Source of the DNA: Pseudomonas kribbensis
Lineage (GTDB): Bacteria; Pseudomonadota; Gammaproteobacteria; Pseudomonadales; Pseudomonadaceae
Assembly: GCF_003352185.1 (NCBI RefSeq)
Contig: NZ_CP029608.1
Span: 868,001 to 932,000 of the forward strand
Reading direction: 5' to 3'
Length of the DNA stretch: 64,000 nucleotides
Position 1 is the stretch's first letter, and each line of letters begins with the position of its first letter. Under the pieces are notes generated by a model that did no database searches, was not told the origin of the DNA, and saw only the letters and a program-made list of their open reading frames with translations. A program made the translations under genes and the position numbers. Below are positions 14,608 through 33,363 of this stretch, piece after piece.

Positions 14608-15242
14608 CGCCGACCTTGCGACACGCGACCGTCCTGTGGAATTTCCTCGGAGCAGGGCGCCAACACAACGATTGTGAGCTGATCGTGGTGTGCGGCTCCT
14701 ACGACCTGCGGGTCTGTGATTACGCCTGTCAGTTGCTGAAAAAAGGCGTCGCCCCACATCTGTTGTTCACCGGCAACACCGGCAACTGGACGAAGCATTT
14801 GTGGGAGCGCACCGAAGCCGATATTTTTGCGCAACGGGCCATGATTCAAGGTGTTTCGCCGGATCAATTCACCCTCGAATCCCGTGCCACCAACTTCGCC
14901 GAGAACATCGCGTTTGCCAGGGAGTTGTTCCCGGACGTGCGCCGGGCGACTTTCCTGACCAAGCCGAATTCGATCCGGCGCGTGGCGTTGACCTTGCCCG
15001 TCCAATGGCCAGGGCTTGAGGCCTGGGTGGATGCGCCGTCGTTCGGTTTTCCGGGGGAGGTCAGCAATCTGATCGGGGTCCTGGGGCTGATCGACGAAAT
15101 GGTCGGGGATATCCACCGGATCATGGTTTACCCTTCGCTGGGCTTTCAGGCCGAGCAGGTGATTCCCGAGGAAGTCGAGGCAGCCTGGTGCTACCTGATC
15201 GAACAGGGATTCGATCACCATTTGATCAAAGGCAGACACTGA
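14604..15242 (+). CDS. YdcF/SanA/ElyC-like (DUF218) protein
   Basis: 212-residue cytosolic Rossmann-like DUF218 protein. It carries ELIVVCGSYDLRVCDYA, then HLLFTGNTG and the conserved ESRATNFAENIAFARELF, which matches the family E-x(4)-N-x(2)-EN signature. E. coli YdcF was reported to bind S-adenosylmethionine; membrane members act in envelope metabolism. This one has no membrane segment. Start overlaps the HAD stop by ATGA and the D-aminoacylase begins 23 bp after its stop. Confidence 0.8.
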   Translation: MTPTLRHATVLWNFLGAGRQHNDCELIVVCGSYDLRVCDYACQLLKKGVAPHLLFTGNTGNWTKHLWERTEADIFAQRAMIQGVSPDQFTLESRATNFAENIAFARELFPDVRRATFLTKPNSIRRVALTLPVQWPGLEAWVDAPSFGFPGEVSNLIGVLGLIDEMVGDIHRIMVYPSLGFQAEQVIPEEVEAAWCYLIEQGFDHHLIKGRH

Positions 15243-15265
15243 CGCCGCTGCCGCCGGAGACTGAC

Positions 15266-16723
15266 ATGCTGTACGACACACTGATTCGCAACGCCCTGGT
15301 CATCGACGGCAGCAACACTCCCGGTTACGCCGCTGACGTGGCAATCCTCGATGGTCGCATCGCGCGCATCGGCGATCTGGGCGATGCCCGTGCCACCGAA
15401 GAGATCGACGCCGCCGGCCGCGTGCTGGCGCCGGGCTTCATCGACGTACACACCCACGACGACACCGTGGTGATCCGCCAGCCGCAGATGCTGCCCAAGC
15501 TCAGCCAGGGCGTGACCACGGTGATCGTCGGCAACTGCGGGATCAGTGCAGCCCCGGTCAGTCTCAAGGGTGATCCACCGGATCCGATGAACCTGCTCGG
15601 CACGGCGGCGGCGTTCGTTTATCCGCGTTTCAGCGATTACCGCGCGGCGGTCGAAGCGGCCAACACCACGCTGAACGTCGCGGCACTGGTGGGGCACACG
15701 GCGCTGCGCAGCAATCACCTCGATGACCTGTTTCGCACGGCGACCGACGATGAAATCGCCGCGATGCGCGAGCAGTTGCGTGAAAGCCTGGAGGCGGGCG
15801 CCCTTGGTTTATCCACAGGTCTGGCGTATGCGAGCGCGTTCTCGGCGTCCACCGATGAAGTCATGCAGCTGACTGAAGAATTGAACGCGTTCGGCGCCGT
15901 GTACACCACCCATCTGCGCAGTGAATTCGAACCGGTACTGGAGGCCATGGACGAAGCCTTTCGCATCGGCCGCCACGCCCGTTCGCCGGTGATCGTTTCC
16001 CACCTCAAGTGTGCCGGCGTGGGCAACTGGGGACGCAGCCCGCAGTTGCTCGCGTCGCTGGAGGAAGCGGCGAAAACCCACCCGGTCGGCTGTGATTGCT
16101 ACCCCTACGCGGCGAGTTCTTCGACGCTGGATCTGAAGCAGGTCACCGACGCCCACCGCATCACCATCACTTGGTCGACGCCGCACCCGGAAGTCAGCGG
16201 TCGCGACCTGACTGCCATCGCGGCCGAATGGACGATGCCACTGCTCGATGCCGCCAGACGCCTGCAACCGGCGGGTGCGGTGTATTACGGTATGGACGAG
16301 AAAGACGTGCGCCGGATCCTCGCCCATCCGCTGACGATGGTTGGCTCCGACGGCTTGCCGGAAGACCCGTTCCCCCATCCGCGCCTGTGGGGCGCTTTCC
16401 CACGGGTGCTCGGCCATTTCAGTCGCGACGTCGGCCTGTTTCCGCTGCACACCGCCGTGCACAAGATGACCGGTCTGTCGGCGGCGCGTTTCGGCTTGAA
16501 GGAGCGCGGCGAGATTCGCGAAGGACACTGGGCGGATCTGGTGTTGTTCGACCCGGCAACCGTGCATGACGTGGCGGACTTCAGCGACCCGCAACGGGCC
16601 GCGCAAGGTATCGATGGCGTGTGGATCAACGGCGTGCTGAGTTATCGCGAGGGGCAGGCCAACGGGCAAAGGGCAGGGCGGTTTCTGGCGCGTGAAGGTG
16701 ATCTGCGTGACAACTTTCACTGA
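15266..16723 (+). CDS. N-acyl-D-amino-acid deacylase (D-aminoacylase family amidohydrolase)
   Basis: 485-residue zinc amidohydrolase of the D-aminoacylase/dihydroorotase-like group, which hydrolyses N-acyl-D-amino acids. Motifs are FIDVHTHDD (HxH), IVGNCGIS (the metal-bridging Cys), THLRSE, VIVSHLKCAG and the catalytic Asp in MVGSDGLP. ATG 15266 follows GGAGACTGAC. It lies 23 bp behind the YdcF-like gene, so it probably ends the carbamoyltransferase operon. It might act on an N-carbamoyl or N-acyl product rather than simple acetyl-D-amino acids. Confidence 0.88.
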   Translation: MLYDTLIRNALVIDGSNTPGYAADVAILDGRIARIGDLGDARATEEIDAAGRVLAPGFIDVHTHDDTVVIRQPQMLPKLSQGVTTVIVGNCGISAAPVSLKGDPPDPMNLLGTAAAFVYPRFSDYRAAVEAANTTLNVAALVGHTALRSNHLDDLFRTATDDEIAAMREQLRESLEAGALGLSTGLAYASAFSASTDEVMQLTEELNAFGAVYTTHLRSEFEPVLEAMDEAFRIGRHARSPVIVSHLKCAGVGNWGRSPQLLASLEEAAKTHPVGCDCYPYAASSSTLDLKQVTDAHRITITWSTPHPEVSGRDLTAIAAEWTMPLLDAARRLQPAGAVYYGMDEKDVRRILAHPLTMVGSDGLPEDPFPHPRLWGAFPRVLGHFSRDVGLFPLHTAVHKMTGLSAARFGLKERGEIREGHWADLVLFDPATVHDVADFSDPQRAAQGIDGVWINGVLSYREGQANGQRAGRFLAREGDLRDNFH

Positions 16724-16840
16724 GTTTCGCGGATTGCGTCACAGTGATGGCACATTGCGATTAAAGAAAGCCATCACCGAGCCGAATTGCTGACATCTAC
16801 CCCGGCTACACTGCGGGGCCAATCAGTCAGGGAGCACCCC

Positions 16841-17209
16841 ATGAGCTTCGGCAAAACCACCCCGATCCTGCGGATTTTCGATGAAGCCAAGGCCTTGGAG
16901 TTCTATGTCGACTTCCTCGGTTTCAAGATCGATTGGCAGCATCGTTTCGAACCCGGTTTCCCGTTGTATCTGCAAGTCTCCCGGGGTGAATGTGTGCTGC
17001 ACCTGTCCGAGCATCATGGCGATGCAACACCGGGTTCGGCCCTGCGGATCGAGACCGATGAGCTGGAGGCCTTCCAGCAGCAGTTGATCGCCAAGAACTA
17101 CAAGTTCTCGCACCCGGGCATTCAGGCAATGCCGTGGGGCAGCCAGGACATGACCATCGCCGACCCGTTCGGCAATCGCCTGGTATTCACCAACGCGATC
17201 AGCCTCTAA
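16841..17209 (+). CDS. Glyoxalase/bleomycin-resistance superfamily protein
   Basis: 122-residue vicinal-oxygen-chelate fold protein of one beta-alpha-beta pair per half: TTPILRIFDEAKALEFYVDF, LYLQVSRGECVLHLSEHHGD and DMTIADPFGNRLVF. ATG 16841 is preceded by AGGGAGCACCCC. Its last bases overlap the end of the convergent araC-type gene. Function (lyase, dioxygenase or drug-binding) is not resolved. Confidence 0.85.
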   Translation: MSFGKTTPILRIFDEAKALEFYVDFLGFKIDWQHRFEPGFPLYLQVSRGECVLHLSEHHGDATPGSALRIETDELEAFQQQLIAKNYKFSHPGIQAMPWGSQDMTIADPFGNRLVFTNAISL

Positions 17210-18234
17210 CTGTCGTTCGATACCCGGTGAGTCTGCCGAAACTCACCGGGCGGCATGCCGCGCCGGCTCTTGAACGTGCGGTGAAACGAGCGCGGTTCGG
17301 TGAAGCCCAGATACTGCGCAATGTCCTGAATCGGCAAGGTGCTGTTGAGCAGGTAATGCTCGGCCAGCTCCTGGCGCAAGTCATCGAGAATCTGTTGATA
17401 CGAGGTGCCGGCCTGATGCAACTGGCGTTGCAGCGTGCGCACGGACACCGCGAGATGCTCGGCCACTTGTTCCTTGCGCGGCAGACCTTCCTTGAGCAAC
17501 TGGCGCAGGATGCTTTTGACCCGCTGCTCCAGCGACGCATCCTCCAGCGTCGCCATCAGGCTCTGCGCGTGCTCTTCCAGCGTGCGCAGCAAATGCGCAT
17601 CGGCCTGACGCAGCGGTAACTGCAAATACGGTAACGGCACGATCAGCGCGGAATACGGCTGATCGAACAGCACCGGGCATTCGAAAAACTGTTCGTACTG
17701 TTCCAGCGTCGTGTCCGCCGGGCGTGAGTGCTCCAGCCACACGGCGGCCGGCGACAATTGGGTGTCGGCGATCCAGCGTGCGTATTGCAGCCAGGAGCCG
17801 AGCACGTTTTCCACCAGATGCCGGCGAATCCGCGGGCGTTCGAAGCGGCAGCTCCAGATCAGGTGCACGTGGCTGTCGTGCATCTCGGCGCGGCTGACGC
17901 CCATGTCGCCCACCAGTTTCTCGAACGGCATGATGCGGCTCATGGCGTCGCCCAGTGTTGCGCAGTTCATGGTGATGTAGCCCAGCACGCTCCAGGAATT
18001 GGGCAGCACGAAATTCGCCGCGTTGAGACCGAACAGCGGGTCGCCCGAGTGTTCGCAAAAGTAGTCGAGCAACCGTTCATGGGTTTCCCCCGGCAGGCGC
18101 AGGCTGTTGTCGCTCAACTGCTGCGCCTGCAACCCCGCCGCCGCCAACGCAGGCTCGATGGCCAGTCCCAGATGTTCGGCATGACGCAGGTACTTGAGCA
18201 GTGGCGGAACGGAGGTGAAGCCGAGCGATTGCAT
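17206..18234 (-). CDS. AraC-family transcriptional regulator
   Basis: 342 residues from ATG 18234 (good AAGGGA site on the minus strand). An N-terminal ligand domain of the Arabinose_bd/OruR-like type (residues ~20-205) is followed by a C-terminal double helix-turn-helix (HLAVSVRTLQRQLHQAGTSY and QDIAQYLGFTEPRSFHRTFK). It is divergent from the alkylglycerone-phosphate-synthase-like gene, with 211 bp between starts. It is therefore the likely activator of that cluster, with a lipid or glycerol derivative as possible inducer. Confidence 0.88.
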   Translation of the reverse strand: MQSLGFTSVPPLLKYLRHAEHLGLAIEPALAAAGLQAQQLSDNSLRLPGETHERLLDYFCEHSGDPLFGLNAANFVLPNSWSVLGYITMNCATLGDAMSRIMPFEKLVGDMGVSRAEMHDSHVHLIWSCRFERPRIRRHLVENVLGSWLQYARWIADTQLSPAAVWLEHSRPADTTLEQYEQFFECPVLFDQPYSALIVPLPYLQLPLRQADAHLLRTLEEHAQSLMATLEDASLEQRVKSILRQLLKEGLPRKEQVAEHLAVSVRTLQRQLHQAGTSYQQILDDLRQELAEHYLLNSTLPIQDIAQYLGFTEPRSFHRTFKSRRGMPPGEFRQTHRVSNDS

Positions 18235-18445
18235 GACCGTATTCCCTTGATCGAGGCCGCCACGGGCGGATGAGCGCCCTGAAAGGTAATTTGAATCCAC
18301 GACTAAAGTAAATGGCTGACGCTTGCGCGACGTTTGACTCAATTGGCTACTCGAACTGGCCGGATGCGACCGTGACACTTTCGGCCGGCTGACTAGTATG
18401 AGGGCCTGAAATCTCACTGATCAGACTGCACAGAAGGACACACGC

Positions 18446-20041
18446 ATGCGACGCTGGAACGGCTGGGGAGATGCAACCACGGTGGTCGAACTGCCGGCCC
18501 GGGGCGCAAGTTTTCTCCATGAGCGACTGGGGGAGGGACGCGCGCTGCCCGACGCGACGCTTGAAGCAGCGTTGGCCCGGGTGCCGGTCTCTCGGCTGGC
18601 GGAACACGCCTTGTACAGCATCGATGCCCATGACCGTCTGCTGCATGCCCGGGGCCAGAGCCTGCCGGACTGGCTGGCGTTGCGTGAAGGCGCGCTGGGT
18701 AACTATCCCGACGCCGTGGCATTCCCGGAAACCGCCGAACACATTCGCCAGTTGCTGGCGCTCGCCCAGGCGCAGGATCTGTGCCTGATTCCCTACGGCG
18801 GCGGCACGTCGGTGGCCGGGCACATCAACCCGCCGGACTCTGCGCGGCCGGTGGTGACGGTGTCCCTGGCGCGGATGAATCGTCTGCTCGACCTCGACGA
18901 ACAAAGCCTGCTGGCGACTTTCGGCCCCGGTGCCAGTGGTCCGCAGGTGGAAAGCCAATTGCGCGCCCGAGGCTACACGCTGGGGCACTTCCCACAGTCG
19001 TGGGAGCTGTCGACGCTGGGCGGTTGGGTGGCCAGCCGTTCCAGCGGCCAGCAGTCGTTGCGTTATGGGCGGATCGAGCAACTGTTCGCCGGCGGAACCC
19101 TGGAAACCTTTGCCGGGCCGCTACAGATTCCAACCTTCCCGGCCTCGGCGGCGGGTCCTGACTTGCGCGAAGTGGTACTGGGTTGCGAGGGGCGTTTCGG
19201 GATCATTTCCGAGGTCAAGGTGCGGGTCAGTGCGTTGCCGGCCGATGAGCGTTTCTACGGCGTGTTTCTGCCCAGCTGGAGCAAGGCGCTGCAAGCCATT
19301 CAGCAACTGGCCCAGGCGCGGGTGCCGCTGTCGATGCTGCGCTTGTCCAACGCGGTGGAAACCGAAACCCAACTTGCACTGGCCGGCCATCCGCAACAAA
19401 TCGCCTGGCTGGAAAAATACCTGAGCCTGCGCGGCGCCGGGCAAGGCAAATGCCTGCTGACTTTCGGCGTGACCGGCAATCGTAAGCAGAATGCGTTGTC
19501 CCTGAGCCAGGCCCGTCAGCATCTGAAGGCCTTCGGCGGGGTGTTCACCGGCACGCTGCTCGGCAAAAAGTGGGCGCAAAACCGCTTTCGCTTTCCGTAT
19601 CTGCGGGAGAACCTGTGGAACGCCGGTTATATGGTCGACACCCTGGAAACCGCCACCGACTGGAGCAACGTCGACAACCTGCTCAATCTCATCGAAAACA
19701 GCCTACGGGATGCCTTGGCGGCGGAAGGAGAGCGCGTGCACGTGTTCACCCATCTGTCCCACGTCTACGGCGAAGGTTCGAGCATCTACACCACTTACGT
19801 GTTTCGCCCGGCGGCGGACTATCCCGCGACGCTGACCCGCTGGAAGGCCCTCAAACACGCGGCCAGCCAGACCATCGTCGACAACCACGGCACCATCAGC
19901 CACCAGCACGGCGTGGGCAAGGATCACGCGCCGTACCTGCCGCGCGAAAAGGGCGCGCTGGCGATGGACACCCTGCAGGCGCTGAGCCGGCACTTCGACC
20001 CGGCCGGGCGCCTGAACCCCGGCACGCTGTTGCAGGAGTGA
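18446..20041 (+). CDS. FAD-binding oxidase of the alkylglycerone-phosphate synthase (AGPS) type
   Basis: 531-residue vanillyl-alcohol-oxidase-family flavoprotein. In eukaryotic AGPS this fold exchanges the acyl group of acyl-DHAP for a fatty alcohol to make the ether bond. PCMH FAD domain: IPYGGGTSVAGH (~residues 114-125), GYTLGHFPQSWELSTLGGW, ASRSSGQQSLRYGRIEQL and EVVLGCEGRFGIISE. The C-terminal cap has YGEGSSIYTTYVF and ISHQHGVGKDHAPYL. H486-Q487-H488 replaces the catalytic HHH of animal AGPS. A GlpD-like gene follows 5 bp later. D-lactate-dehydrogenase-like oxidases share the fold, but the central motifs fit AGPS better. Confidence 0.82.
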   Translation: MRRWNGWGDATTVVELPARGASFLHERLGEGRALPDATLEAALARVPVSRLAEHALYSIDAHDRLLHARGQSLPDWLALREGALGNYPDAVAFPETAEHIRQLLALAQAQDLCLIPYGGGTSVAGHINPPDSARPVVTVSLARMNRLLDLDEQSLLATFGPGASGPQVESQLRARGYTLGHFPQSWELSTLGGWVASRSSGQQSLRYGRIEQLFAGGTLETFAGPLQIPTFPASAAGPDLREVVLGCEGRFGIISEVKVRVSALPADERFYGVFLPSWSKALQAIQQLAQARVPLSMLRLSNAVETETQLALAGHPQQIAWLEKYLSLRGAGQGKCLLTFGVTGNRKQNALSLSQARQHLKAFGGVFTGTLLGKKWAQNRFRFPYLRENLWNAGYMVDTLETATDWSNVDNLLNLIENSLRDALAAEGERVHVFTHLSHVYGEGSSIYTTYVFRPAADYPATLTRWKALKHAASQTIVDNHGTISHQHGVGKDHAPYLPREKGALAMDTLQALSRHFDPAGRLNPGTLLQE

Positions 20042-20046
20042 CCGCC

Positions 20047-21642
20047 ATGAGCGCGGACTGGAACGCCGAATGGCGCGAGCAAGTCCTGCCGACGTTGGCG
20101 GGTGAAACCTGGGATCTGATCGTCATCGGCGGCGGTATCAGCGGCGCCGGCATCCTGCGCGAAGCCGCACGCCGTGGCTGGCGTTGCCTGTTGCTGGAGC
20201 AGCGTGATTTTGCCTGGGGCACGTCCAGTCGATCCTCGAAAATGGTCCATGGCGGTTTGCGCTATATCGCCAAGGGCCAGTGGCGGCTGACCCGGGATTC
20301 GGTGCGCGAACGCCAGCGCCTGCTCGACGAAGCGCCGGGGCTGGTGGAGCCGATGAGTTTCATGATGCCGCACTATCGCGGCGGCTTCCCCGGGCCTCGG
20401 GTGCTGGGTGGTTTGTTGTCGGTCTATGACGCATTGGCCGGGCGCCGGGATCATCGTTTCCATGATGCGCAGCAACTGCGTTATCTGGCGCCGGGCGTGA
20501 AAGAAAACGACCTGCTGGGCGGCACCTGTTTTGTCGATGCGCTGACCGATGACGCACGGCTGGTGATGCGCGTGTTGAGCGAAGCGCGGGCTGATGGCGC
20601 GGTGGTGCTCAACGGCATGCGCGTCGAACATCTGTTGCGGGAAAACGGGCGGGTAAGCGGAGTTCAGGTCGAGGATTGCGAGGCCGGTGCATCGCTGCAA
20701 CTGCGTTGTGGTGTGCTGGCGGTGGCTACCGGGGCCTGGGCCGAACGCTTGCGTCCACCCGAGGCGCCGCGCCAGTTGCGTCCGTTGCGCGGCAGTCATT
20801 TGCTGCTGCCGGGCTGGCGCTTGCCAGTGGCGCAGGCCTTTACGTTCATGCACGAGCAGGACCGGCGGCCGGTGTTCGTTTTCCCGTGGGAAGGCGCCAC
20901 GGTGGTGGGCACCACAGACCTCGATCATCGCGAGAATCTGGACCAGAGCGCGAGCATCAGCGGTGAAGAACTGGACTATCTGCTGGCCGCCTGCCGACAG
21001 CAGTTTCCCGGCGCTGAAGTGACAGCCGCCGACGTACTTTCGACCTGGTCCGGCGTGCGCCCGGTGGTGGGCAGTGCGGCGGGTGAGCATCAGGACAAAC
21101 CGTCGAACGAAACCCGTGAACATGTGCTGTGGCAGGAGCCGGGTTGCGTCACGTTGGCCGGCGGCAAACTCACGACGTTCCGTCCGCAAGCCATCGAGGT
21201 GCTCAAGGCCTGCGCCGACATGCTCGGCCGTTCTTTTGATGACGATGCCGCGCCGGTATTTGCCACCGTGCCGCCACTGACAATTCCGAGCCTTAGTCCT
21301 GGCCAGTGGCGGCGTCTGGCCGGACGGCATGGCCGGGACCTGCCGAGGCTGGCGCAATTGCTCGCCGAACTGGGCCATGAAACGGTCGGCGCCACCGACA
21401 CCTTGTGGGCCGAACTGGCCTTTGCCTGCGAAGCGGAAATGGTCCTGCACCTGGATGACCTGCTGCTGCGCCGCACCCGTCTCGGCCTGTTGCTGCCCCA
21501 TGGCGGCGCGGATTATTTCCCGGCCATTCGCCGACTCTGCCAGCCACGACTTGGCTGGGACGACGAACACTGGCAACAGGAACAGCAACGCTATCAGGCG
21601 TTATGGCAACGCCATCACGGCCTGCCGGAAATCGCGCAGTGA
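20047..21642 (+). CDS. GlpD-like FAD-dependent glycerol-3-phosphate dehydrogenase
   Basis: 531 residues from ATG 20047; a longer open frame extending left inside the preceding gene is a read-through. N-terminal FAD motif [15 protein letters not shown] (residues 26-40), [16 protein letters not shown] as in Glp[16 protein letters not shown], and late [14 protein letters not shown]. The usual reaction is oxidation of glycerol-3-phosphate to DHAP with transfer of electrons to quinone at the membrane. Location between AGPS-like and FGGY kinase genes suggests a substituted glycerol-3-phosphate, for example 1-alkyl-G3P, as substrate. Confidence 0.85.
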
Positions 21643-21662
21643 TGCCCCTCGAAGAGAGCTCC

Positions 21663-23231
21663 ATGGACAACCACCCGAACAAGCGTTACCTGCTGGCCAT
21701 CGACAATGGCACCCAGAGCGTGCGCGCGCTGCTCTTCGATTTGCAGGGCAATCTGCTCGGCAAGGGCAAGGTTGAATTGCAGGCCTATTACTCGACGCAA
21801 CCGGGCTGGGCCGAACAGGATCCGGAATATTACTGGGCGAAACTGGGCGAGGCCTGCCAGCAGGTGTGGGCGCAAACCGGTATCGATCGTTCGCAGATTG
21901 CCGGGGTTTCTCTCACGACCCAGCGCGGCACGGTGATCAATGTCGATGCTCAGGGCAAGCCGTTGCGCCCGGCGATTCTCTGGCTCGATCAGCGCCAGAG
22001 CCAAGTCGAAGGCGGGATCAAGGGGCCGTGGGGCTGGCTGTTCAAACTGGCCGGCGCGCAGGCCACGGTGGATTACTTTCGCGCCCAGGCCGAGGCCAAC
22101 TGGATCGCTCGCCATCAGCCTGATGTGTGGGCGGCGACCGACAAATTTCTGCTGCTCTCCGGGTTTCTCACGCATCGCCTGTGCGGGCGCTTCGTCGACT
22201 CTGTGGGCTGTTGCGTCGGATATCTGCCGTTCGACTTCAAACGTCTGCGCTGGGCCGCAACCCGTGACTGGAAATGGCAGGCGCTGGCGGTGCGTCCCGA
22301 GCAACTGCCGACCTTGCACAAACCCGGTGAAACCCTCGGCCACATAACCGCCGAAGCGAGTCTTCACACCGGCATTCCCGAAGGCGTGCCATTGATCGCG
22401 GCGGGGGCGGACAAGGCCTGTGAAGTGCTCGGTTCCGGTGTCGTCGATTCGGGTACGGTGTGCCTGTCTTACGGCACCACCGCGACCATCACCAGCACCC
22501 GTTCGCGCTATCTGGAAATCGTCCCGCTGATTCCGCCGTACCCGTCGGCGGTGCCGGATCAGTACAACTGCGAGGTGATGATTTATCGCGGCTACTGGAT
22601 GGTCAGCTGGTTCAAGAACGAGTTCGGCCTGCGGGAAATGCAGCAGGCCAAAGAGCAGGGCATCGAGCCCGAGCAACTGTTCGATGCGCTGGTCGAGGCG
22701 GTGCCGCCGGGCTCGATGGGATTGATGCTGCAGCCGTACTGGTCACCGGGCATTCGCGAACCGGGTGTCGAAGCCAAAGGCGCGATGATCGGCTTCGGCG
22801 ACGTGCACACCCGCGCGCATATCTACCGGGCAATCCTCGAAGGCCTGGCGTATGCCTTGCGCCAGGGCATGGAGAAAATCGAGAAGCGCTCGAAGATCTC
22901 CGTCACCCGTTTACGAGTGGCTGGCGGTGGCTCGCAAAGTGATGCGGCGATGCAACTGACGGCGAACATTTTCGGCCTGCCGGCGGAGCGTCCGCACGTC
23001 TATGAAGCGTCCGGTCTGGGGGCGGCGATTTGTTGTGCGGTGGGGCTGGGGTTGCACGCGGATTTCCCTTCGGCGATAGCGGCGATGACCCGGGTCGGCG
23101 CGGTGTTCCTGCCGCAACCCGAGGCGCAAAAGATCTATGAGCGCCTGTACAGGGACGTCTATCTGCGCATGTACCGACAGCTCAAGCCGTTGTACCAGAG
23201 CATTCGCAAGATCACTGGTTACCCGGCCTGA
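21663..23231 (+). CDS. FGGY-family carbohydrate/polyol kinase
   Basis: 522 residues from ATG 21663 (site GAAGAGAG); an alternative ATG overlapping the previous stop at 21642 would add seven residues. The N-terminal ATPase lobe has [18 protein letters not shown] and the FGGY signature region follows in [20 protein letters not shown]. The phosphate loop SYGTTATI and the C-terminal adenosine motif [14 protein letters not shown] are present. It would phosphorylate a polyol, possibly glycerol or an alkylglycerol given its partners. It ends the AGPS-GlpD-kinase operon, with 116 bp to the next gene. Confidence 0.85.
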
Positions 23232-23347
23232 GGGAACAGCGCACGTGGCGCTATCGGAGAACTTTTCTGGTGAGATCGGACAGTGTCAGGGGCGGGGTCG
23301 GTTGTTAGGCTCGATCCCCACGGCACACATAACAAGAACCAGAAGCA

Positions 23348-24634
23348 ATGAAGCTGATCTCCCTCCTGCTGCTTTGCGCAATGGCCCCCACGGCGTGGGG
23401 CTGGTCGAACCATACGGTGGGCAGCTACCTGGCGTTGCAGGATCTGCCGGCGTTGCGCGATGCGTCGCCCGTTGAAGTCGAACCGCTGGAACAGTTTCTC
23501 TCACAACAATACCCGGCCATCGTCGCGTTGCTCGATGAGCAGGAACGCTTCGCCCGTGAACACTTCAAGCAATACCCGCCGCGCCCTGACAACCTCAGGT
23601 TGCCCGCCGCGCCGAGCGACAATCTGCGCCACGACTTCCTCACTGCACTGCGGATCAATCCGCTGATCCATCTGGCGATGGTCATCCAGCCGTTGCCGGG
23701 CAAGGACCTGCCCGAGCGCGAGCATCTGCAAGCCGATCAGGTGATGGTCGAACAGACGCTTTCGCCGTGGAATCGCCAGCGGTTCATTCGCGTGGCCGAT
23801 CACGAAAAAGTCGCGCCCCTGGCCGTGTTGGCCAGCGCCGCCGATGAGCCGGACTACGGTCATGACATCAATCTGTTCAGCGACAACCCCGGTGAAGTCG
23901 CCGCGTTGTACGGCTTCGGTCCGCAGCCGTTTGGCGATGCACGCTTCCAGTACAGCTCCCAGGCACCGTTTCACATGGGCTTCTTCCATGAGAGCCCGGT
24001 GGTGTATGCGGCTGCCGGATTTCTCGAACGCAGCTGGCCGGACTGGCGCGCGTATCAATACATGGGGCTGGCGCGACTGGCGTTTGCCACGGGGCATTCC
24101 TACTGGGGTTATCGCTTTCTCGGCTGGGGCCTGCACCACGTTCAGGACCTGACCCAGCCGTATCACGCCAAGCCGTTGCCCGGCGTCGAACTGCCGAGCC
24201 TTCTGCTGCTGGAGGGCAAGGCGCTGGCCGGTTTTGCGGAAGACAAACAGGCGTCCATCGAACGGGTCGCGACCCGCCACATGGAAGTCGAGAAATACCA
24301 GTCGACCTGGCTGCGGCGCGTGCTGCGCGCCGGTCAGCCGCATCCGATGCTCGATGCTTACGCCAATCCCGCCGGGGACGCGCATTACCCGCCGTACTCC
24401 GTGGACTATTTGCGCGAAGTGGTGAGTGCCGAGTCGGTCGATGACTCCGCCGCCTTCGACGAAGCCATCGGCCAGTGGCTGGAAACGGCGCCGGTCACTA
24501 GCGACTTCAGTGCCGGCAATCAGTTGCAGCAAGAGAATTTCGACCATCCGGAGCTCAACCGGCAACTGCTCAAACTGCTCGGCCATTTCGGCGCCCATAG
24601 CCGGATTTATGTCAGCGCGGGACTGGCGCCTTGA
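23348..24634 (+). CDS. Secreted zinc-dependent phospholipase C / S1-P1 nuclease-like protein
   Basis: 428 residues with a signal peptide (residues 1-18, cleavage AWG|WS) that would leave Trp19 as mature N-terminus, the hallmark of the zinc phospholipase C and S1/P1 families, whose Trp1 binds zinc. The core motif LHHVQDLTQPYHA gives H263-x3-D267-x5-H273. This is the same spacing as H118/D122/H128 of Bacillus PLC and H116/D120/H126 of S1/P1. H250 in GHSYWGYRF may be a further ligand. It probably cleaves a phosphodiester, plausibly of a phospholipid, in the periplasm or outside. Followed by DUF1302 and DUF1329 genes. Confidence 0.7.
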   Translation: MKLISLLLLCAMAPTAWGWSNHTVGSYLALQDLPALRDASPVEVEPLEQFLSQQYPAIVALLDEQERFAREHFKQYPPRPDNLRLPAAPSDNLRHDFLTALRINPLIHLAMVIQPLPGKDLPEREHLQADQVMVEQTLSPWNRQRFIRVADHEKVAPLAVLASAADEPDYGHDINLFSDNPGEVAALYGFGPQPFGDARFQYSSQAPFHMGFFHESPVVYAAAGFLERSWPDWRAYQYMGLARLAFATGHSYWGYRFLGWGLHHVQDLTQPYHAKPLPGVELPSLLLLEGKALAGFAEDKQASIERVATRHMEVEKYQSTWLRRVLRAGQPHPMLDAYANPAGDAHYPPYSVDYLREVVSAESVDDSAAFDEAIGQWLETAPVTSDFSAGNQLQQENFDHPELNRQLLKLLGHFGAHSRIYVSAGLAP

Positions 24635-24679
24635 GCATCGCGGCAACACACAACAATAAGAACAGGGAAGGAGGAACAG

Positions 24680-26638
24680 ATGATCAACACTCGATTGCGC
24701 CTGTCTGGCGTAGCGCTCCCCGGTGTCGGTTTGGCAGGGCTGCTGCAACTCTGCGCAGTCGATGCGGTGCAGGCCGCCGAGTTCAGCGTGCTGGACAATC
24801 AGGTCACCGGCTCACTCGACACGACTCTGTCCTATGGCCGCTTGTGGCGGGTTCAGGGCCGGGACAAGAACAACGATGACGTCAACACCAACGACGGCAA
24901 TCGCAATTTCGACACCGGGCTGGTTTCCGAGGTGTACAAGATCACTTCGGAGCTGGAGGCCAACTACCAGAACTACGGGATGTTCCTGCGCGGCACGGCG
25001 TTCTACGACACCCAGTTGATGGACAAGCGCAACGACTACTACCACAACAACAGCCCGTCGCAGCCGAGCCAGAGTTATCCCCAGGACGACCGTTTCACCA
25101 GCCAGACCCGCGACATCGCCGGCAGCCGGATCGAGATGCTTGACGCCTACGTTCACGGCAGTTGGGACGTTGCGCAAATGCCGGTGACGGCGCGGGTAGG
25201 GCGTCAGGTGTTCAACTGGGGCGAGGGGATTTTCTATCGCGGCGGGATCAACACCACCAACCCGGTGGACGCCGCCAAGTACCGCTTGCCCGGTGCCGAG
25301 GTCAAGGAAGTGCTGATGCCGGTGGAGGCGGTCAGCTTCAACATCGGCCTGACCGACAGCCTGACGATGGAGAGCTTCTACCAGACCAACTGGAAGGAAA
25401 CCCGCATCGACCCGGTCGGCACCTTCTACTCGCAGACCGATCTGTTCGCCGACGGCGGCAACACCGCTTACAACAACTTCAGCGGCACTGCCCTCGATAC
25501 ACCGGTGCCGGGGTTCGGCAATGTCATCGGCCTGTACAGCGCACTGGGCAACAACCCGATGCTGGGCCCGGCGTTGAAATCCACCGGCCTCTACGCCAAC
25601 GGCGTGACCCCGGCCTACGGCAACACCCTGAAAGTGGCGTCCATCGGCAAGGACTACAACGCACGCAACGACGGCCAGTTCGGCTTTGCCTTTCGCTACA
25701 TCGCCGAAGAACTCAACAGCACCGAGTTCGGCCTGTACATGGTCAACTACCACGCCAAGGAACCGACCATTGCCGCCGACCTCGGTGGCTACAAGGGCAT
25801 CGACATGAATGCCCTGACCAACATGCTTTCCAGTGTCGCCGGCAGTCAGGCCGGGGCCCTGGCCAACGGGCTGGCGACTGCCGATGTGATGGGCAACATC
25901 CAGGCTCATCGGCGGTATGCCGAAGACATCCGCATGTACGGTTTCAGCTTCAACACCACGCTGGGCAATGCCTCGGTATTCGGTGAGCTGGCCTATCGAC
26001 CGAACCTGCCCATCGGCATCGCGGCCACCAACGATTTGATCGGCGATCTGGCCAACGGCGCTGCGGCGGCGGTGTCCGGCAAGGCCATCAACGTCGGCGG
26101 GCAAATGGTCACCCTCGACAGCCAGATCAACAACGCCGAGCGCGTCGAAGCGTTCAACACGTCGTTGGGCAGCATCTACAACTTCGGCCCGACGCTGTCG
26201 TTCGACTCGATGTTCGGCATCTTCGAACTGGCCTCCGAGCACCTGCGCGGCAGCAGCCTGCAATACACCGCCTACGACGGCAGCACCCGTTACTACGCCG
26301 GCACCGGCAACACTTCGTACGTGTCCGGCGGCGATCGCGACGATCAGGTCAACCGCAATTCCTACAGCTACACGGTGATGTTCAACGGCACCTGGAACGA
26401 TGTCTACGCCGGGATCAACGTCTCGCCTTACGTCGTCTACAAGGACGACTTCAAGGGCAACAGCTACCAGGCCGGCAACGCCATCGACGGGCGCAAGGCG
26501 TACACGCTGGGGGTCAAGGCCAACTACCAGAACAAGCTCGAAGCCGAACTGCAGTACACCGAGTTCTGGGGCGGCGGGCAGAACAACGGCATTCGCGACC
26601 GCGACAACGTCGGGTTCAACCTCAAGTATTTCTTGTGA
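24680..26638 (+). CDS. DUF1302 outer-membrane-type protein
   Basis: 652 residues with a signal peptide (cleavage near VQAAEF). Aromatic, Gly/Asn-rich amphipathic strands follow, including GRQVFNWGEGIFYRGGINT and a terminal GVKANYQNKLEAELQYTEFW ending in phenylalanine-leucine, as in beta-barrels. DUF1302 genes usually sit with DUF1329 genes in clusters for uptake or breakdown of hydrophobic compounds. The ATG follows a strong GGGAAGGAGG site, 45 bp after the PLC-like gene. Inferred role: passage of a hydrophobic substrate across the outer membrane. Confidence 0.85.
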   Translation: MINTRLRLSGVALPGVGLAGLLQLCAVDAVQAAEFSVLDNQVTGSLDTTLSYGRLWRVQGRDKNNDDVNTNDGNRNFDTGLVSEVYKITSELEANYQNYGMFLRGTAFYDTQLMDKRNDYYHNNSPSQPSQSYPQDDRFTSQTRDIAGSRIEMLDAYVHGSWDVAQMPVTARVGRQVFNWGEGIFYRGGINTTNPVDAAKYRLPGAEVKEVLMPVEAVSFNIGLTDSLTMESFYQTNWKETRIDPVGTFYSQTDLFADGGNTAYNNFSGTALDTPVPGFGNVIGLYSALGNNPMLGPALKSTGLYANGVTPAYGNTLKVASIGKDYNARNDGQFGFAFRYIAEELNSTEFGLYMVNYHAKEPTIAADLGGYKGIDMNALTNMLSSVAGSQAGALANGLATADVMGNIQAHRRYAEDIRMYGFSFNTTLGNASVFGELAYRPNLPIGIAATNDLIGDLANGAAAAVSGKAINVGGQMVTLDSQINNAERVEAFNTSLGSIYNFGPTLSFDSMFGIFELASEHLRGSSLQYTAYDGSTRYYAGTGNTSYVSGGDRDDQVNRNSYSYTVMFNGTWNDVYAGINVSPYVVYKDDFKGNSYQAGNAIDGRKAYTLGVKANYQNKLEAELQYTEFWGGGQNNGIRDRDNVGFNLKYFL

Positions 26639-26670
26639 GTCCACAGGTTTTTTGAATTCGGAGAACGAAC

Positions 26671-28044
26671 ATGTTTCCTGCATCACGACTGACCAAGACC
26701 ACACTGGCGTTGCTCTTGAGCCTAACCGCCGCAAGCGCACTGGCGGCCATCTCGCCCCAGCAGGCCGAACAACTGAAGACCTCGCTGACCCCCATGGGCG
26801 CCGAGCGCGCTGGCAACGCTGCCGGCACCATCCCGGCCTGGACCGGCGGCATCACCCAGGCGCCGACCGGCTACAAACCTGGCCAGCATCACCCCGATCC
26901 GTACGCGGCGGACAAACCGCTGTTCACCATCACCAAGGCCAATCTCGACCAGTACAAGGCTCATCTCAGCCCCGGTCAGATCGCCCTGTTCAGCAGCTAC
27001 CCCGACACCTTCCAGATGCTGGTCTATCCCTCGCGCCGGTCCGGCTCGGCGCCGCAATGGCTGTATGACAACACTCTGAAAAATGCGACCTCGGCCAAAC
27101 TGCTGGAGGGCGGCAGCGGGTTCGCCGATGCCTATGGCGGCGTGCCGTTTCCGGTGCCCAAGGATGGCGTCGAAGTGTTGTGGAACCACATCACCCGCTA
27201 TCGCGGCATCTACGTGGTCCGTCGCGCTTCCGAAGCGCCGGTGCAGCGCAACGGCAGCTTCGCGCTGGTGACCTCGCAGCAGGAAGGCTTCTTCAACTAC
27301 TACCGCCCGGGCGGCCAGTTCGCCGACCTGAAAAACATCCTGTTCTACTACCTCGCCTTCGTGAAAAGCCCGGCGCGTCTGGCCGGTGGTGCCGCACTGG
27401 TTCACGAAACGCTGGACCAGCTCAAGGACCCGCGCCAGGCCTGGATCTATGACGCCGGCCAACGCCGCGTCCGCCGTGCGCCGAACCTCGCCTACGACAC
27501 GCCGATCGCTTCCTCCGATGGCCTGCGCACCGCCGACGACACCGACCTGTTCAACGGCTCGCCCGACCGCTTCGACTGGAAGCTCAAGGGCAAGCAGGAA
27601 ATCTACATCCCCTACAACAACTACAAAGTCGGCAGCCCCGACGTGAAATACGCCCAACTGCTCACCCCCGGCCACCTCAACCCGCAATACACCCGCTACG
27701 AGCTGCACCGCGTCTGGGTGGTGGAAGGCACACTCAAGCCGGGCGCGCGGCATGTCTATTCCAAGCGAGTGCTGTTCCTCGACGAAGACAGCTGGGGTGC
27801 CGCACTGGTGGACCAGTACGACGGGCGAGGGGAGTTGTGGCGCGTGTCGATGGCCTACCTGAAAAACTTCTACGACCTGCCGACCACCTGGAGCGCACTC
27901 GACGTCTTCCACGACTTGCAGGCCCGGCGGTACTACGTGCAGAACCTGGATAACGAAGAGGCCTCCACCGTCGACTTCTCGCAACCGGTGCCGGAGGATT
28001 CGTATTTCATGCCGTCGGCGTTGCGGCAGCGGGGGACTCGGTAA
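26671..28044 (+). CDS. DUF1329 periplasmic lipid-binding-like protein
   Basis: 457 residues with a signal peptide (cleavage at ASALA|AI). The family start AISPQQAEQLKTSLTPMGAE, the AWTGGI segment and PFPVPKDGVEVLWNH are typical. DUF1329 proteins adopt a LolB/OMP-assembly-like fold and accompany DUF1302 barrels. It lies 32 bp after the DUF1302 gene in the same operon. Probable periplasmic carrier for the hydrophobic substrate; no catalytic residues recognised. Confidence 0.85.
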   Translation: MFPASRLTKTTLALLLSLTAASALAAISPQQAEQLKTSLTPMGAERAGNAAGTIPAWTGGITQAPTGYKPGQHHPDPYAADKPLFTITKANLDQYKAHLSPGQIALFSSYPDTFQMLVYPSRRSGSAPQWLYDNTLKNATSAKLLEGGSGFADAYGGVPFPVPKDGVEVLWNHITRYRGIYVVRRASEAPVQRNGSFALVTSQQEGFFNYYRPGGQFADLKNILFYYLAFVKSPARLAGGAALVHETLDQLKDPRQAWIYDAGQRRVRRAPNLAYDTPIASSDGLRTADDTDLFNGSPDRFDWKLKGKQEIYIPYNNYKVGSPDVKYAQLLTPGHLNPQYTRYELHRVWVVEGTLKPGARHVYSKRVLFLDEDSWGAALVDQYDGRGELWRVSMAYLKNFYDLPTTWSALDVFHDLQARRYYVQNLDNEEASTVDFSQPVPEDSYFMPSALRQRGTR

Positions 28045-29215: not shown

Positions 29216-29621
29216 AGATGCTTACCTCTGATGAGGCTGCGCCCATTTCGCCGCTGAGCAAAAGGGAGGCAGCTGTGCGCAAGTTAGCGGCCCGGTAAGC
29301 ATCACAACCCGGCGCATCCGAAGATGCCATGCGCACAGCCACCATCAAGTGCAGGCGAATGCCTGACTGGATCGGACGTGTACAACCGTGAACGCATGCC
29401 GAACCGCTAAGTTCGATCACTGGAAATCAGTGACGCAATCAAATTACGCAGCCAGCCCAAGGCGCACAAGCCGGCGGATTCTGGCGTAGCCGTAGGCAAC
29501 GGCGCAAGGTTTTGTGGGCTTTGGGACGTATCACGGCGTGTCCTTAAACATCGCTGACCAACCGTGTGTAATAGCGATTCAGAACCCGTCATCCAATTCC
29601 TGAAGATGGCCATTTCAGGAC
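29216..29621. other. Intergenic region without a supported gene
   Basis: 406 bp between the DUF6124 start and the chemoreceptor terminator. A 68-codon frame (29407-29613, minus) has no ribosome site or recognisable product. Short dyads such as GCGCAT...ATGCGC occur. It must contain the DUF6124 promoter; nothing else can be supported. Confidence 0.4.
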
Positions 29622-29681: not shown

Positions 29682-31601
29682 TTACACGCGGAAATGACTC
29701 ACCATCTGCTGCAACTGACCACCCAACCGAGCCAGTTCAACACTCGACTTGGCCGTCTCATCACTCGCCGCTGCCGTCTGCTCCGACACGTCGCGGACGT
29801 TGATGATGCTGCGGCTGATTTCTTCGGCCACGGCGCTTTGCTGTTCGGCGGCTGCGGCGATCTGCTGGTTCATCGACTGGATGTTCGACACCGTGCGGGT
29901 GATGTTTTCCAGGGAGTCACCGGCCTTGCGGGTCAGGGCGACGCTGCTGTCGGTCAGGGCGCGGCTGTTGTTCATCACGGCGGACACCTGTTGCGTGCCG
30001 TTTTGCAGACCGGCCACCAGGCCTTCGATTTCTTCGGTGGATTTCTGCGTGCGCTGGGCCAGGCCACGGACTTCGTCGGCGACCACGGCAAAACCGCGAC
30101 CGGCTTCACCGGCACGGGCGGCTTCGATGGCGGCGTTGAGGGCCAGCAGGTTGGTCTGTTCGGCCACGGCCTTGATCACGTCCATGACGCTGCCGATCTT
30201 GTCGCTTTCCTGTTGCAGCACGCTCATGGCTTCGGTGGATCGCACCACTTCGCTGGCCAGACGCTCGATCTGGGCGATGGCTTCGTTCACCACTTTGTCG
30301 CCTTCGCGGGCTTCGCCATCAGCGGCGGCCGCGGCTTGCGAGGCTTCTTCGGCGTTGCGCGCGACTTCCTGCACGGTGGCAGTCATCTCGTGCATGGCGG
30401 TGGCCACCTGATCGGTCTCGACCTTCTGGCTGTTCACGCCGGCGCTGGTCTGTTCGGTGACAGCCGACAACTCTTCAGCGGCGCTGGCGATCTGGGTCAC
30501 GCCGTCGCGGATGCCGCTGATCAGGTCGCGCAGGGTCACGCCCATGCGCGCGATGCCTTGTTGCAGCACACCGAGTTCGTCGCGGCGGGTGACGATCACG
30601 TTGTGGCTCAGGTCGCCGCTGGCGATCCGCTCGACCACGGCCATGGTTTCCTGCAACGGACGGGTGATCTGGCGGGTGATGATGAACGCCGCGATGACGC
30701 CCACCAGCAACGCCAGCAGAGTGCTGATCAGTTGCAGGGTGCGGGCTTGAGCGCTTTCCATGTCACGACGATCGAGCTGGATCTGATACATCTGCTCGCT
30801 CAGGGTCACGATGGTGGCGCCCTGATCGGTCATTTCCTTGCGTGCCTGCACCGCTTCGCTGTTGGCGTTCTTGAACGCCTGCAAGGCACTGCGGTAGTTG
30901 GTCAGCGCTGTTTCCAGCTGACGCAGGGTGTCTTGCTGGGTGCTGGAGAAATGCACGCTCAGCTGTTTCAGGCTGGCGATGGCCACATCCAGTTGACCGA
31001 CGGCTTTCTGCTCGGTGTCGGCATTGGCGGTGGCGGTGTAGCCGCGCACTTCATAGCGCGCCAGGATGAACGCTTCCTTGGCTTCGGTGATGGCCTGGAA
31101 CTGTTCGAAACGTGTATCGCTCAGCGGCATTTGCTGCACGCGGTTGCTGATCGACTCGATCAGGTTGTACGCGGTCTCGGCATTGGCGGCCATGGTGTCG
31201 CGCGCGGTGTTGCCGGTGCGGTAGGCGTTGCGCATCTTGTTCAGGGACGTCTGGTACTCGGCGATGGTCGCCGCCTGCTCCTTGAGCAGCTTGACGTTCT
31301 CCGGGCTCTTGAACTTGCCGATCAGCGCTTGTTGCTGTGCAGCGAAACCGTCGAGGGTGGTCTGCACGTTCTGCGCGGCGGTTTCATCGCCGTTGGTCAG
31401 CATGTATTGCAGGCGCACCACGCGCAGCTTGGTCAGGCCGGCGTTCAGCTGGGTGATGTCGCTCATCCAGTTGCTGCGGTCAATCAGGCCGCCGAGGCTG
31501 GTCCAGCCGGTCAGGGCAAGGATGCAGGTCAGGGCCAGGACGAGACCGAAACCCAGCCCCAGTTTGAGGTTCACGCTGATGTTGCCGAACCAGCTATTCA
31601 T
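29682..31601 (-). CDS. Methyl-accepting chemotaxis protein with helical bimodular sensor (McpS-like)
   Basis: 639 residues from ATG 31601 (GGAGG 7 bp before it); a GTG one codon earlier is less well spaced. TM1 is at ~12-32 ([20 protein letters not shown]) and a ~250-residue all-helical periplasmic sensor extends to TM2 near 285-305. HAMP ([17 protein letters not shown]) and the signalling hairpin [20 protein letters not shown] follow. The length and N-terminus closely recall P. putida McpS, an HBM-type receptor for TCA-cycle acids. Ligand of this copy is inferred, not shown. No C-terminal CheR-binding pentapeptide is seen. Confidence 0.88.
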
Positions 31602-33345: not shown

Positions 33346-33363
33346 AGCGTCGCGATTGAAATG

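What the first reader, a model, noticed from the sequence alone, without database searches (positions are those of the whole stretch)
18234..28044. Candidate system for using (or making) alkyl/ether glycerolipids
Seen: an AraC regulator diverges from an AGPS-like flavoprotein, a GlpD-like dehydrogenase and an FGGY kinase packed within 5-20 bp. Next come a secreted zinc-PLC-like protein and a DUF1302/DUF1329 pair. Known: AGPS swaps acyl-DHAP for alkyl-DHAP, GlpD oxidises glycerol-3-phosphate, and FGGY enzymes phosphorylate polyols. Inference: a lipase/PLC step frees an alkylglycerol, the outer-membrane/periplasmic pair imports it, the kinase and GlpD-like enzyme make alkyl-DHAP, and the AGPS-like enzyme breaks the ether bond by reverse exchange. 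I recall a similar regulator-oxidase-GlpD-kinase order in P. aeruginosa near PA3024-PA3027, but do not know an assigned pathway.
Basis: partly seen in the sequence, partly recalled or inferred. Interest (0 to 1): 0.75.

Follow-up and report, generated by a model that had tools for sequence, protein, structure and literature searches.

The report
Operon likely breaking down ether lipids
A soil Pseudomonas carries a published but unexplained set of genes that looks like the cell's ether-lipid building pathway run backwards, so it may let the bacterium feed on ether lipids; this has not been tested.

Summary
Confirmed. The regulator and three-gene operon are known: GliR (PA3027) and PA3026-PA3024 of P. 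aeruginosa (PMC8151288), drawn there as a glycerol-to-alkyl-DHAP route, without phenotype. New here: (1) The next gene is the ortholog of PA3464, GliR's other main target, with the published motif before it, so the PLC/DUF1302/DUF1329 genes probably share the regulon. (2) The flavoprotein is an AGPS relative with catalytic residues kept; the kinase lacks the glycerol-site Glu and Phe; ordinary glp genes lie elsewhere. (3) Of 293 genomes of the order, 70 have both AGPS relative and kinase, one only the first, five only the kinase, four of these with a divergent AGPS beside it. (4) In three of four actinobacterial records an AGPS relative is linked to GlpD, in two also to a lipid kinase. (5) Three of seven scanned loci of other AGPS types have an acyltransferase or reductase instead. 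Kinase plus dehydrogenase is the reverse of synthesis, so I favour breakdown: alkylglycerol to alkyl-DHAP to fatty alcohol plus (acyl-)DHAP. Substrate and direction are inferred.

The parts
17206..18234 (-). gliR ortholog, AraC-family activator (342 aa from ATG at 18234; the longest ORF runs to 18417)
   Evidence: NCBIfam NF050186 GliR 594.3 bits, cut-off 570, matching from residue 62 of the long ORF; PF12625 + HTH_18
18363..18377 (+). putative GliR box (GATGCGACCGTGACA) in the operon promoter
   Evidence: one of two exact matches of GATSSGACMGTGWCA in the 6.32-Mb genome; within 3 mismatches before AGPS in 80 of 80 named Pseudomonas loci, 70 within 1. The pattern was written from this site, the plc site and the PA3026 site of PMC8151288, so this is not independent; at up to 1 mismatch the genome has 4 matches and the reversed-pattern control also 4
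18446..20041 (+). AGPS-like flavoprotein (PA3026 ortholog)
   Evidence: PDB 2uuu AGPS 248 bits, D-LDH 72; equivalents of Dictyostelium R352, R447, Y508 are R299, R387, Y448, kept in 128 of 128 close relatives
20047..21642 (+). GlpD-like FAD dehydrogenase (PA3025 ortholog)
   Evidence: DAO + DAO_C; GlpD model 270 bits, below cut-off 360; R341, R360, K377 kept in 123-124 of 125 (correspondence to E. coli GlpD R317/R332/K354 recalled)
21663..23231 (+). FGGY kinase (PA3024 ortholog)
   Evidence: FGGY_N/C; below the cut-off of each of the 12 NCBIfam models it matches; catalytic D250 kept, GlpK Glu and Phe of the glycerol site replaced
23246..23259 (+). GliR motif A (TGGCGCTATCGGAG) upstream of the PLC gene
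   Evidence: with the base before it, 14 of 15 bases of the PA3464-promoter motif A in Table A1 of PMC8151288; within 1 mismatch in 42 of 45 kinase-PLC gaps
23274..23288 (+). putative GliR box (GATCGGACAGTGTCA) upstream of the PLC gene
   Evidence: second of the two exact genome matches; within 2 mismatches in 44 of 45 kinase-PLC gaps
23348..24634 (+). secreted zinc-type phospholipase C, PA3464 (PlcB; name recalled) ortholog
   Evidence: 63% identical to the only match in P. aeruginosa PA7, whose upstream DNA carries the published PA3464 motifs and primer; H263/D267/H273 invariant in alignment A1
24680..26638 (+). DUF1302 predicted outer-membrane barrel
   Evidence: PF06980 501 bits; 45 bp after plc; present in 45 of 45 loci that have plc beside the operon
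26671..28044 (+). DUF1329 LolA-like periplasmic protein
   Evidence: PF07044 531 bits; 32 bp after DUF1302; same 45 of 45 loci

Best explanation
A GliR-controlled pathway for taking apart 1-O-alkyl (ether) glycerolipids, built by running the ether-lipid synthesis steps in reverse. The secreted phospholipase C removes the head group, and an ordinary lipase (not in the cluster) would remove any sn-2 acyl chain. The DUF1302/DUF1329 pair takes the lipid across the outer membrane. The FGGY kinase phosphorylates 1-O-alkylglycerol to 1-alkyl-sn-glycerol-3-phosphate; the GlpD-like enzyme oxidises it to 1-alkyl-DHAP, passing electrons to quinone; the AGPS-like flavoenzyme makes the flavin-DHAP adduct from alkyl-DHAP, expels the fatty alcohol, and releases DHAP (water as acceptor) or acyl-DHAP (fatty acid as acceptor). 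Shown here: gene content, conserved linkage, co-occurrence, GliR motifs, residue pattern. Inferred: substrate, direction, uptake, acceptor. Weakest step: that this AGPS clade cleaves rather than makes the ether.
For: AGPS relative with catalytic R/R/Y kept. Three-gene linkage in 35 of 37 loci outside Pseudomonas; in 293 genomes 70 have both AGPS relative and kinase, 1 the first only, 5 the kinase only, 65 of the 70 within 6 kb; 4 of the 5 kinase-only genomes have a divergent AGPS and GlpD next to the kinase. Kinase: R88 and D250 kept in 120 of 120 readable, GlpK Glu in none, GlpK Phe replaced by Thr in 120, the own GlpK having QRE and GTGCF. The genome has glpF-glpK-glpR-glpD elsewhere. In 3 of 4 actinobacterial records the AGPS relative is linked to GlpD, in 2 to a YegS/diacylglycerol-type lipid kinase; a lipid-kinase family also follows the operon in 4 of 47 loci, L173 being the one identified as YegS, as PA3023 does in P. 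aeruginosa. Other AGPS loci: L142 SDR-AGPS-acyltransferase, L143 AGPS-acyltransferase-reductase-like, L144 AGPS-SDR, expected partners of synthesis; reduction of alkyl-DHAP is the synthetic step (PMC7517302, abstract start). PA3464 is a GliR-bound and GliR-raised gene and its motif is here. DUF1302/DUF1329 proteins PP_0765/PP_0766 are needed for growth on Tween 20 (PMC10866462 passages).
Against: No biochemical or growth evidence. Deleting PA3026-PA3024 or gliR in P. aeruginosa gave no phenotype on the media and BIOLOG plates tried; the word 'ether' does not occur in that paper's main text. The cloned PA3464 promoter was bound but not activated by GliR in E. coli. No fatty-alcohol dehydrogenase or lipase was recognised among the 20 neighbours scanned, which are only part of the neighbours. 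Reverse or hydrolytic AGPS in a cell appeared in no listing I saw. Two loci (L136, L167) have a short-chain reductase next to this AGPS clade, as a synthetic locus would. PLC and DUF1302/1329 are absent from 32 of 77 judgeable Pseudomonas loci, and the PLC from three of four whole genomes checked, so they are accessories. Four of the seven scanned loci of other AGPS types had no synthetic partner. The Streptomyces AGPS relative keeps HHH, so the HQH change does not mark the whole module. One of 71 genomes (G774) has the AGPS without the kinase.
Confidence: 0.53

Rival explanations
1. Same chemistry, different R group: the module cleaves another O-substituted glycerol (for example a glycosylglycerol or the ether-linked head group of a betaine lipid) instead of long-chain alkylglycerol.
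For: The residue pattern only says that the glycerol site has been changed. A BCCT betaine-type transporter follows the kinase in L147.
Against: Lipid kinase beside the AGPS relative in two actinobacterial loci; PLC as a GliR target; AGPS has a long-chain tunnel in its solved relative (PMC3509576 passages); BCCT is one locus of 47.
Confidence: 0.18
2. Salvage synthesis: the kinase makes lysophosphatidate from monoacylglycerol, the GlpD-like enzyme makes acyl-DHAP from it, and AGPS swaps in a fatty alcohol to make alkyl-DHAP for ether lipids.
For: Uses all three enzymes with AGPS in its known direction; fits a lipid kinase; explains why no DHAP acyltransferase was seen beside it; a reductase lies upstream in L136 and L167.
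Against: No alkyl-DHAP reductase candidate in most loci, unlike L142 and L144. No fatty-acyl-reductase Sterile domain was found in this genome (but no control genome rang, so this shows nothing by itself). Ether lipids in Pseudomonas are not known to me (recalled). PLC and probably uptake genes are co-regulated.
Confidence: 0.12
3. Synthesis from glycerol, as drawn in PMC8151288: glycerol to G3P to DHAP to (another enzyme) acyl-DHAP to alkyl-DHAP.
For: Published suggestion from annotation; the authors report that the strains outside Pseudomonas in their set had no glpD or glpK homolog, so these genes might be the only ones there. I did not test that.
Against: Kinase and GlpD-like protein fail the GlpK and GlpD models (163 of 498; 270 of 360) while the genome's own glpK and glpD pass (880, 803); GlpK Glu and Phe are missing in all 120 kinases readable there; no acyltransferase among the neighbours scanned; mutants grew normally on glycerol.
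Confidence: 0.1
4. An ordinary 2-hydroxyacid or sugar catabolic operon; the oxidase is a lactate/glycolate-type enzyme and the AGPS resemblance is incidental.
For: GlcD matches over 207 residues.
Against: GlcD 105 bits against a cut-off of 568; AGPS 248 bits over most of the length; AGPS-type catalytic residues kept.
Confidence: 0.03

Closest known systems
GliR (PA3027) regulon of P. aeruginosa: PA3026-PA3024, PA3023, PA3464 (PMC8151288)
   Same: Orthologous regulator, same divergent operon, same PLC with the same motif upstream.
   Different: PA3464 stands apart in P. aeruginosa; here it is joined to the operon with DUF1302/DUF1329, and the YegS kinase gene is not in the cluster. That paper draws synthesis and leaves the role open; I argue for breakdown.
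Alkyl-DHAP synthase (AGPS/ADPS) and the eukaryotic ether-lipid synthesis pathway
   Same: AGPS relative; the same proposed intermediates, alkyl-G3P and alkyl-DHAP.
   Different: Partners are a kinase and a GlpD-type dehydrogenase in place of an acyltransferase and a reductase; His to Gln in the HHH motif in 124 of 128 close relatives.
Alkylglycerol monooxygenase (AGMO)
   Same: Same proposed end: cleaving the ether bond of alkylglycerols; described as the only enzyme known to do so (PMC3617469, PMC7911779; abstract starts).
   Different: AGMO is a tetrahydrobiopterin-dependent monooxygenase acting on alkylglycerol; the cleavage step proposed here would need neither oxygen nor that cofactor.
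GlpF-GlpK-GlpR-GlpD glycerol regulon
   Same: Kinase then FAD dehydrogenase on a glycerol unit.
   Different: Separate genes in the same genome; the window's kinase and dehydrogenase fail the GlpK/GlpD models.

Membership tests
GliR regulon | GliR-family regulator | tested here: met
   NF050186 594.3 bits, cut-off 570
GliR regulon | divergent AGPS-like/GlpD-like/FGGY operon with a GliR motif | tested here: met
GliR regulon | regulation by GliR in vivo in this organism | not testable with these tools
   only shown for P. aeruginosa (PMC8151288)
AGPS family | similarity above that to other VAO/PCMH enzymes | tested here: met
   248 bits against 72 for D-LDH
AGPS family | catalytic R352, R447, Y508 (Dictyostelium numbering) | tested here: met
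   R299, R387, Y448; 128 of 128 close relatives. In the 12 distant relatives R352 and Y508 are kept in 12, R447 in 8
AGPS family | HHH motif near the C-terminus | tested here: not met
   HQH here and in 124 of 128 close relatives; HHH in 12 of 12 distant ones. I do not know that HHH is required, and therefore call the protein an AGPS relative, not AGPS
AGPS family | alkyl-DHAP synthase activity | not testable with these tools
   -
Glycerol kinase GlpK | curated GlpK score | tested here: not met
   163.2 against 498 and 158.5 against 590
Glycerol kinase GlpK | glycerol-site Arg-Glu pair (R83/E84 of E. coli, recalled) | tested here: not met
   Arg kept, Glu replaced by G/A/Y/S/T in 120 of 120 readable
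Glycerol-3-phosphate dehydrogenase GlpD | curated GlpD score | tested here: not met
   270 against 360; ligand-site residues are kept
Glycolate oxidase GlcD | curated GlcD score | tested here: not met
   105 against 568
PA3464 phospholipase C | ortholog of PA3464 | tested here: met
   63% identity, only match in PA7, published promoter motifs and primer upstream of it
Zinc phospholipase C | zinc-PLC fold | tested here: inconclusive
   motif present; PDB match only E 0.5; structure prediction never ran
AGMO | AGMO homolog in the locus | tested here: not met
   no such domain in the seven proteins; the rest of the genome was not searched for it

The most novel reading that the evidence does not exclude
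Bacteria of at least two phyla degrade alkyl ether lipids with an enzyme set that is ether-lipid synthesis run backwards: a lipid-type kinase (FGGY in Proteobacteria, YegS-type in Actinobacteria), a GlpD relative that oxidises alkyl-G3P, and an AGPS relative acting as an alkyl-DHAP etherase. It would be an ether-cleaving route without a monooxygenase, unlike AGMO.
Probability: 0.43. Interest if true: 0.85.

Novelty: new variant of a known kind. Interest (0 to 1): 0.62.

Why it matters
[quoted passage not shown] A defined bacterial pathway would explain how alkyl ether lipids can be consumed, give a function to a published regulon that has none, and show that an AGPS relative can serve breakdown. 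It makes the question directly testable: three enzymes, one regulator, and known test compounds such as batyl and chimyl alcohol.

Tried and rejected
Rejected: lactate/glycolate oxidase or sugar operon. Rejected as main reading: glycerol catabolism, since glpF, glpK, glpR and glpD lie together elsewhere.

Led nowhere: no other gene recurs often next to the operon outside the fluorescens-type Pseudomonas. In the 47 loci tabulated, the most frequent neighbours after the four core families were a MOSC family (f4, 9 loci) and a CheW/response-regulator family (f5, 8 loci). The 20 representative neighbours scanned in Pfam otherwise gave mixed functions. A Sterile-domain (PF03015) search was empty, but no control genome rang either, so it shows nothing. 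The two one-mismatch GliR-box sites elsewhere in the genome lie near what read to me as a topA end and a LysR gene; with 4 matches at up to one mismatch against 4 in the control, they are not evidence of targets. Structure prediction of the PLC was tried twelve times and always answered 'busy', so no fold evidence is offered. Literature searches for bacterial alkylglycerol use, reverse AGPS or an assigned role of this operon listed nothing to the point beyond PMC8151288 (I saw the listed rows only). A search for PA3464 with PlcB returned no paper. The homologous-protein results listed only the best 120 relatives (82-100% identical for the PLC, 75-95% for the kinase); some rows went into alignments A1 and A2, and A2 was not used further.
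Full report
Observation. The regulator is 17206-18234 on the minus strand, diverging from 18446-20041 (AGPS-like), 20047-21642 (GlpD-like) and 21663-23231 (FGGY kinase), with gaps of 5 and 20 bp. After 116 bp come a secreted PLC-like gene (23348-24634), then DUF1302 (24680-26638) and DUF1329 (26671-28044). The genome is a single 6.32-Mb contig; the named genomes with the nearest AGPS proteins are Pseudomonas of the fluorescens/koreensis type.

Already known. The regulator passes the NCBIfam GliR model (594 bits, cut-off 570). GliR is PA3027 (PMC8151288; I saw the outline and abstract, the passages found, the first part of the Results, the tables and Appendix A). Overproduction raises PA3024, PA3025, PA3026, PA3464 and PA3023 by 173-, 163-, 135-, 130- and 47-fold; ChIP-seq peaks lie at the promoters of PA3026, PA3464 and PA3342 among 24. 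Purified GliR binds these promoters, but only the PA3026 promoter was activated in E. coli. The authors draw a glycerol-to-alkylglycerone-phosphate route, leave the role open, and found no phenotype for either deletion, including on glycerol. They found the cluster in few of 1748 genomes, and report no glpD or glpK homolog in the carriers outside Pseudomonas, which would favour the glycerol reading and which I did not test. A search with the four locus tags returned only this paper. My searches listed no paper that assigns the operon to ether-lipid breakdown.

The PLC gene is PA3464's ortholog. In P. aeruginosa PA7 the only match is 63% identical. Its upstream DNA contains the published motif A of the PA3464 peak (ATGGCGCTATCGGAG), motif B (GGACAGTGCCC) and the PA3464 primer sequence. 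In the window the kinase-PLC gap has GTGGCGCTATCGGAG, 14 of 15 bases of motif A, and 14 bases further on a second box. A box pattern that I wrote from the two window sites and the PA3026 site has exactly two perfect matches in the genome, before the operon and before the PLC gene. This is circular, and at up to one mismatch the count (4) equals that of the reversed-pattern control (4), so the count is no evidence; the position and the conservation are. Across 80 named Pseudomonas loci the box is within 3 mismatches before AGPS in 80, within 1 in 70 (180-bp stretches); in the 45 loci with an adjacent PLC it is within 2 mismatches in 44 and motif A within 1 in 42 (stretches up to 420 bp). Of 4000 random 180-bp stretches of the same loci, true sites not excluded, 52 reached 2 mismatches. 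Outside Pseudomonas the box was mostly not found. DUF1302 starts 45 bp after plc and DUF1329 32 bp after that, so they are probably in the same transcript (inference).

How common is the joined cluster? Three of the 35 without PLC end too soon to judge (L021, L047, L061). In one of the 5, a P. protegens-type genome (L055), GliR lies elsewhere (L214). The PLC is missing from three of four whole genomes searched. PLC/DUF genes are therefore accessories.

The core three form one unit. Outside Pseudomonas, 43 fetched loci carry this AGPS clade at under 70% identity; of the 37 with at least 5.2 kb downstream, 35 have both GlpD-like and kinase genes adjacent on the same strand. None of 12 loci of more distant AGPS types has either (three of them with under 5.2 kb downstream). 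The clade is one side of a branch with support 100/99 (long branches were flagged). In 293 genomes of the order, 70 have both this AGPS clade and the kinase, 1 only the AGPS, 5 only the kinase, 217 neither; in 65 of 70 they lie within 6 kb. I assigned the clade by score, counted one 167-residue fragment (G996), and take the two draws of 293 to be the same; genomes are related, so the Fisher p is not a fair probability. Pairwise distances of AGPS and kinase correlate at 0.85 over 36 loci (shared descent contributes). Of the five kinase-only genomes, four have a divergent 465-485-aa AGPS relative and a divergent GlpD (in L225 a piece at the contig end) directly before the kinase; the one searched, from L223, matches AGPS best in the PDB (187 bits against 114 for glycolate oxidase). 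The fifth (L224) has the kinase alone. In G876 and G989 GliR, GlpD-like and kinase are together and AGPS elsewhere. G774 has this AGPS without the kinase.

Actinobacteria. A protein search of plasmid records gave four hits, all actinobacterial, 35-40% identical. In Streptomyces fungicidicus and Tsukamurella tyrosinosolvens the annotated order is GlpD, TetR, AGPS relative, YegS/diacylglycerol-type lipid kinase; their GlpD proteins are 31% identical to the window's, and the Streptomyces flavoprotein matches AGPS best in the PDB (298 bits against 139 for D-LDH). Nonomuraea has GlpD and TetR but no detected lipid kinase; the fourth record, 35% identical, has none of these. So in two of four records a lipid kinase stands where the FGGY kinase does here. 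This is a small sample, but it argues that the phosphorylated molecule is a lipid.

Enzymes. The flavoprotein aligns to Dictyostelium AGPS (248 bits) and far less to D-LDH (72). Residues reported as important in that enzyme (R352, R447, Y508; PMC3509576 passages) correspond, by my counting along the alignment with a 3-residue offset, to R299, R387 and Y448, kept in 128 of 128 close relatives; R447 is kept in only 8 of the 12 distant ones. The HHH motif is HQH in 124 of 128 close relatives, HHH in 12 of 12 distant ones and in the Streptomyces protein. The kinase keeps the GlpK-type Arg and catalytic Asp (120 of 120 readable of 121) but not the Glu that pairs with Arg at glycerol (G 92, A 18, Y 8, S 1, T 1) nor the Phe (T 120); the genome's own GlpK has both. 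Residue numbers for E. coli GlpK and GlpD are recalled. The kinase fails the GlpK, XylB and AI-2-kinase cut-offs. The genome's own glpF, glpK, glpR and glpD lie together at 5.02 Mb; GlpK and GlpD score 880 and 803, GlpR 330.6 against a cut-off of 331.

Direction. I scanned ten neighbours from seven of the 12 distant AGPS loci. Three loci have partners expected for synthesis: L142 SDR, AGPS, acyltransferase (and an HMG-CoA reductase); L143 AGPS, acyltransferase, a reductase-like epimerase-family protein; L144 AGPS, SDR. The other four (L145, L187, L190, L192) gave no such partner. In synthesis alkyl-DHAP is reduced to alkyl-G3P (PMC7517302, abstract start). The module here has instead a GlpD-type dehydrogenase and a kinase, the enzymes for going from alkylglycerol to alkyl-DHAP. 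With an AGPS relative next, the products would be fatty alcohol and DHAP or acyl-DHAP. Against this: no alcohol-handling gene was recognised among the neighbours scanned, two loci of this clade have a reductase upstream (L136, L167), and reverse AGPS chemistry in a cell appeared in no listing I saw.

Uptake. A DUF1302/DUF1329 pair of P. putida (PP_0765/PP_0766) is needed for growth on Tween 20 and proposed as a transport system (PMC10866462 passages); a DUF1329 protein is needed for normal growth on monoterpenes (PMC6394551 passage). Import of an amphiphile is therefore a reasonable inference for this pair.

Verdict. Ordinary in that regulator and operon are published; new in the joined PLC-uptake genes with the conserved GliR motif, in the evidence that the kinase is not a glycerol kinase, and in the cross-phylum module that argues for breakdown. 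I put 0.53 on ether-glycerolipid breakdown, 0.18 on another glycerol ether, 0.22 on the two synthetic readings together. On checking I lowered the first by 0.02 and raised the glycerol reading by the same, because I had left out the authors' report of missing glpK/glpD outside Pseudomonas and the silent PA3464 promoter in E. coli; the novel case went from 0.45 to 0.43 for the same reason.

Noticed in passing
L221 5958-10498, L222 930-5493, L223 5887-10518, L225 2-3477: A second lineage of the module: divergent GlpD, a 465-485-aa AGPS relative, and the same kinase family, in that order, in genomes without the window-type AGPS.
   Followed up: partly
L136 7217-9142 and L167 11813-13619: A short-chain dehydrogenase and an OleD-like epimerase-family protein sit directly upstream of the operon (of AGPS in L136, of GliR in L167) in two different families; could be an acyl/alkyl-DHAP reductase.
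   Followed up: partly
L147 7587-9530: A BCCT betaine/choline transporter follows the kinase; possible hint at a polar glycerol ether.
   Followed up: no
L155 4702-6393, L166 6911-8611, L162 14398-15219: Acyl-CoA ligases of one family upstream of AGPS in two loci and a PhyH-family dioxygenase after the kinase in a third.
   Followed up: no
window 29682-31604 (-): Chemoreceptor with a helical bimodular (HBM) sensor domain close to the cluster.
   Followed up: no
window 29262-29349 (-): C4 antisense RNA (Rfam RF01695, 62.7 bits, gathering 45), a family recalled from P4-type phages.
   Followed up: no
window 14604-17206: DUF218, amidohydrolase and glyoxalase genes left of gliR; genes of similar size flank gliR in the P. 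protegens-type genome (L214) although the operon is elsewhere there.
   Followed up: partly
window 31856-34846: PmrG-like phosphatase, PAP2 protein and a PMT-type glycosyltransferase, perhaps a lipopolysaccharide-modification group.
   Followed up: no
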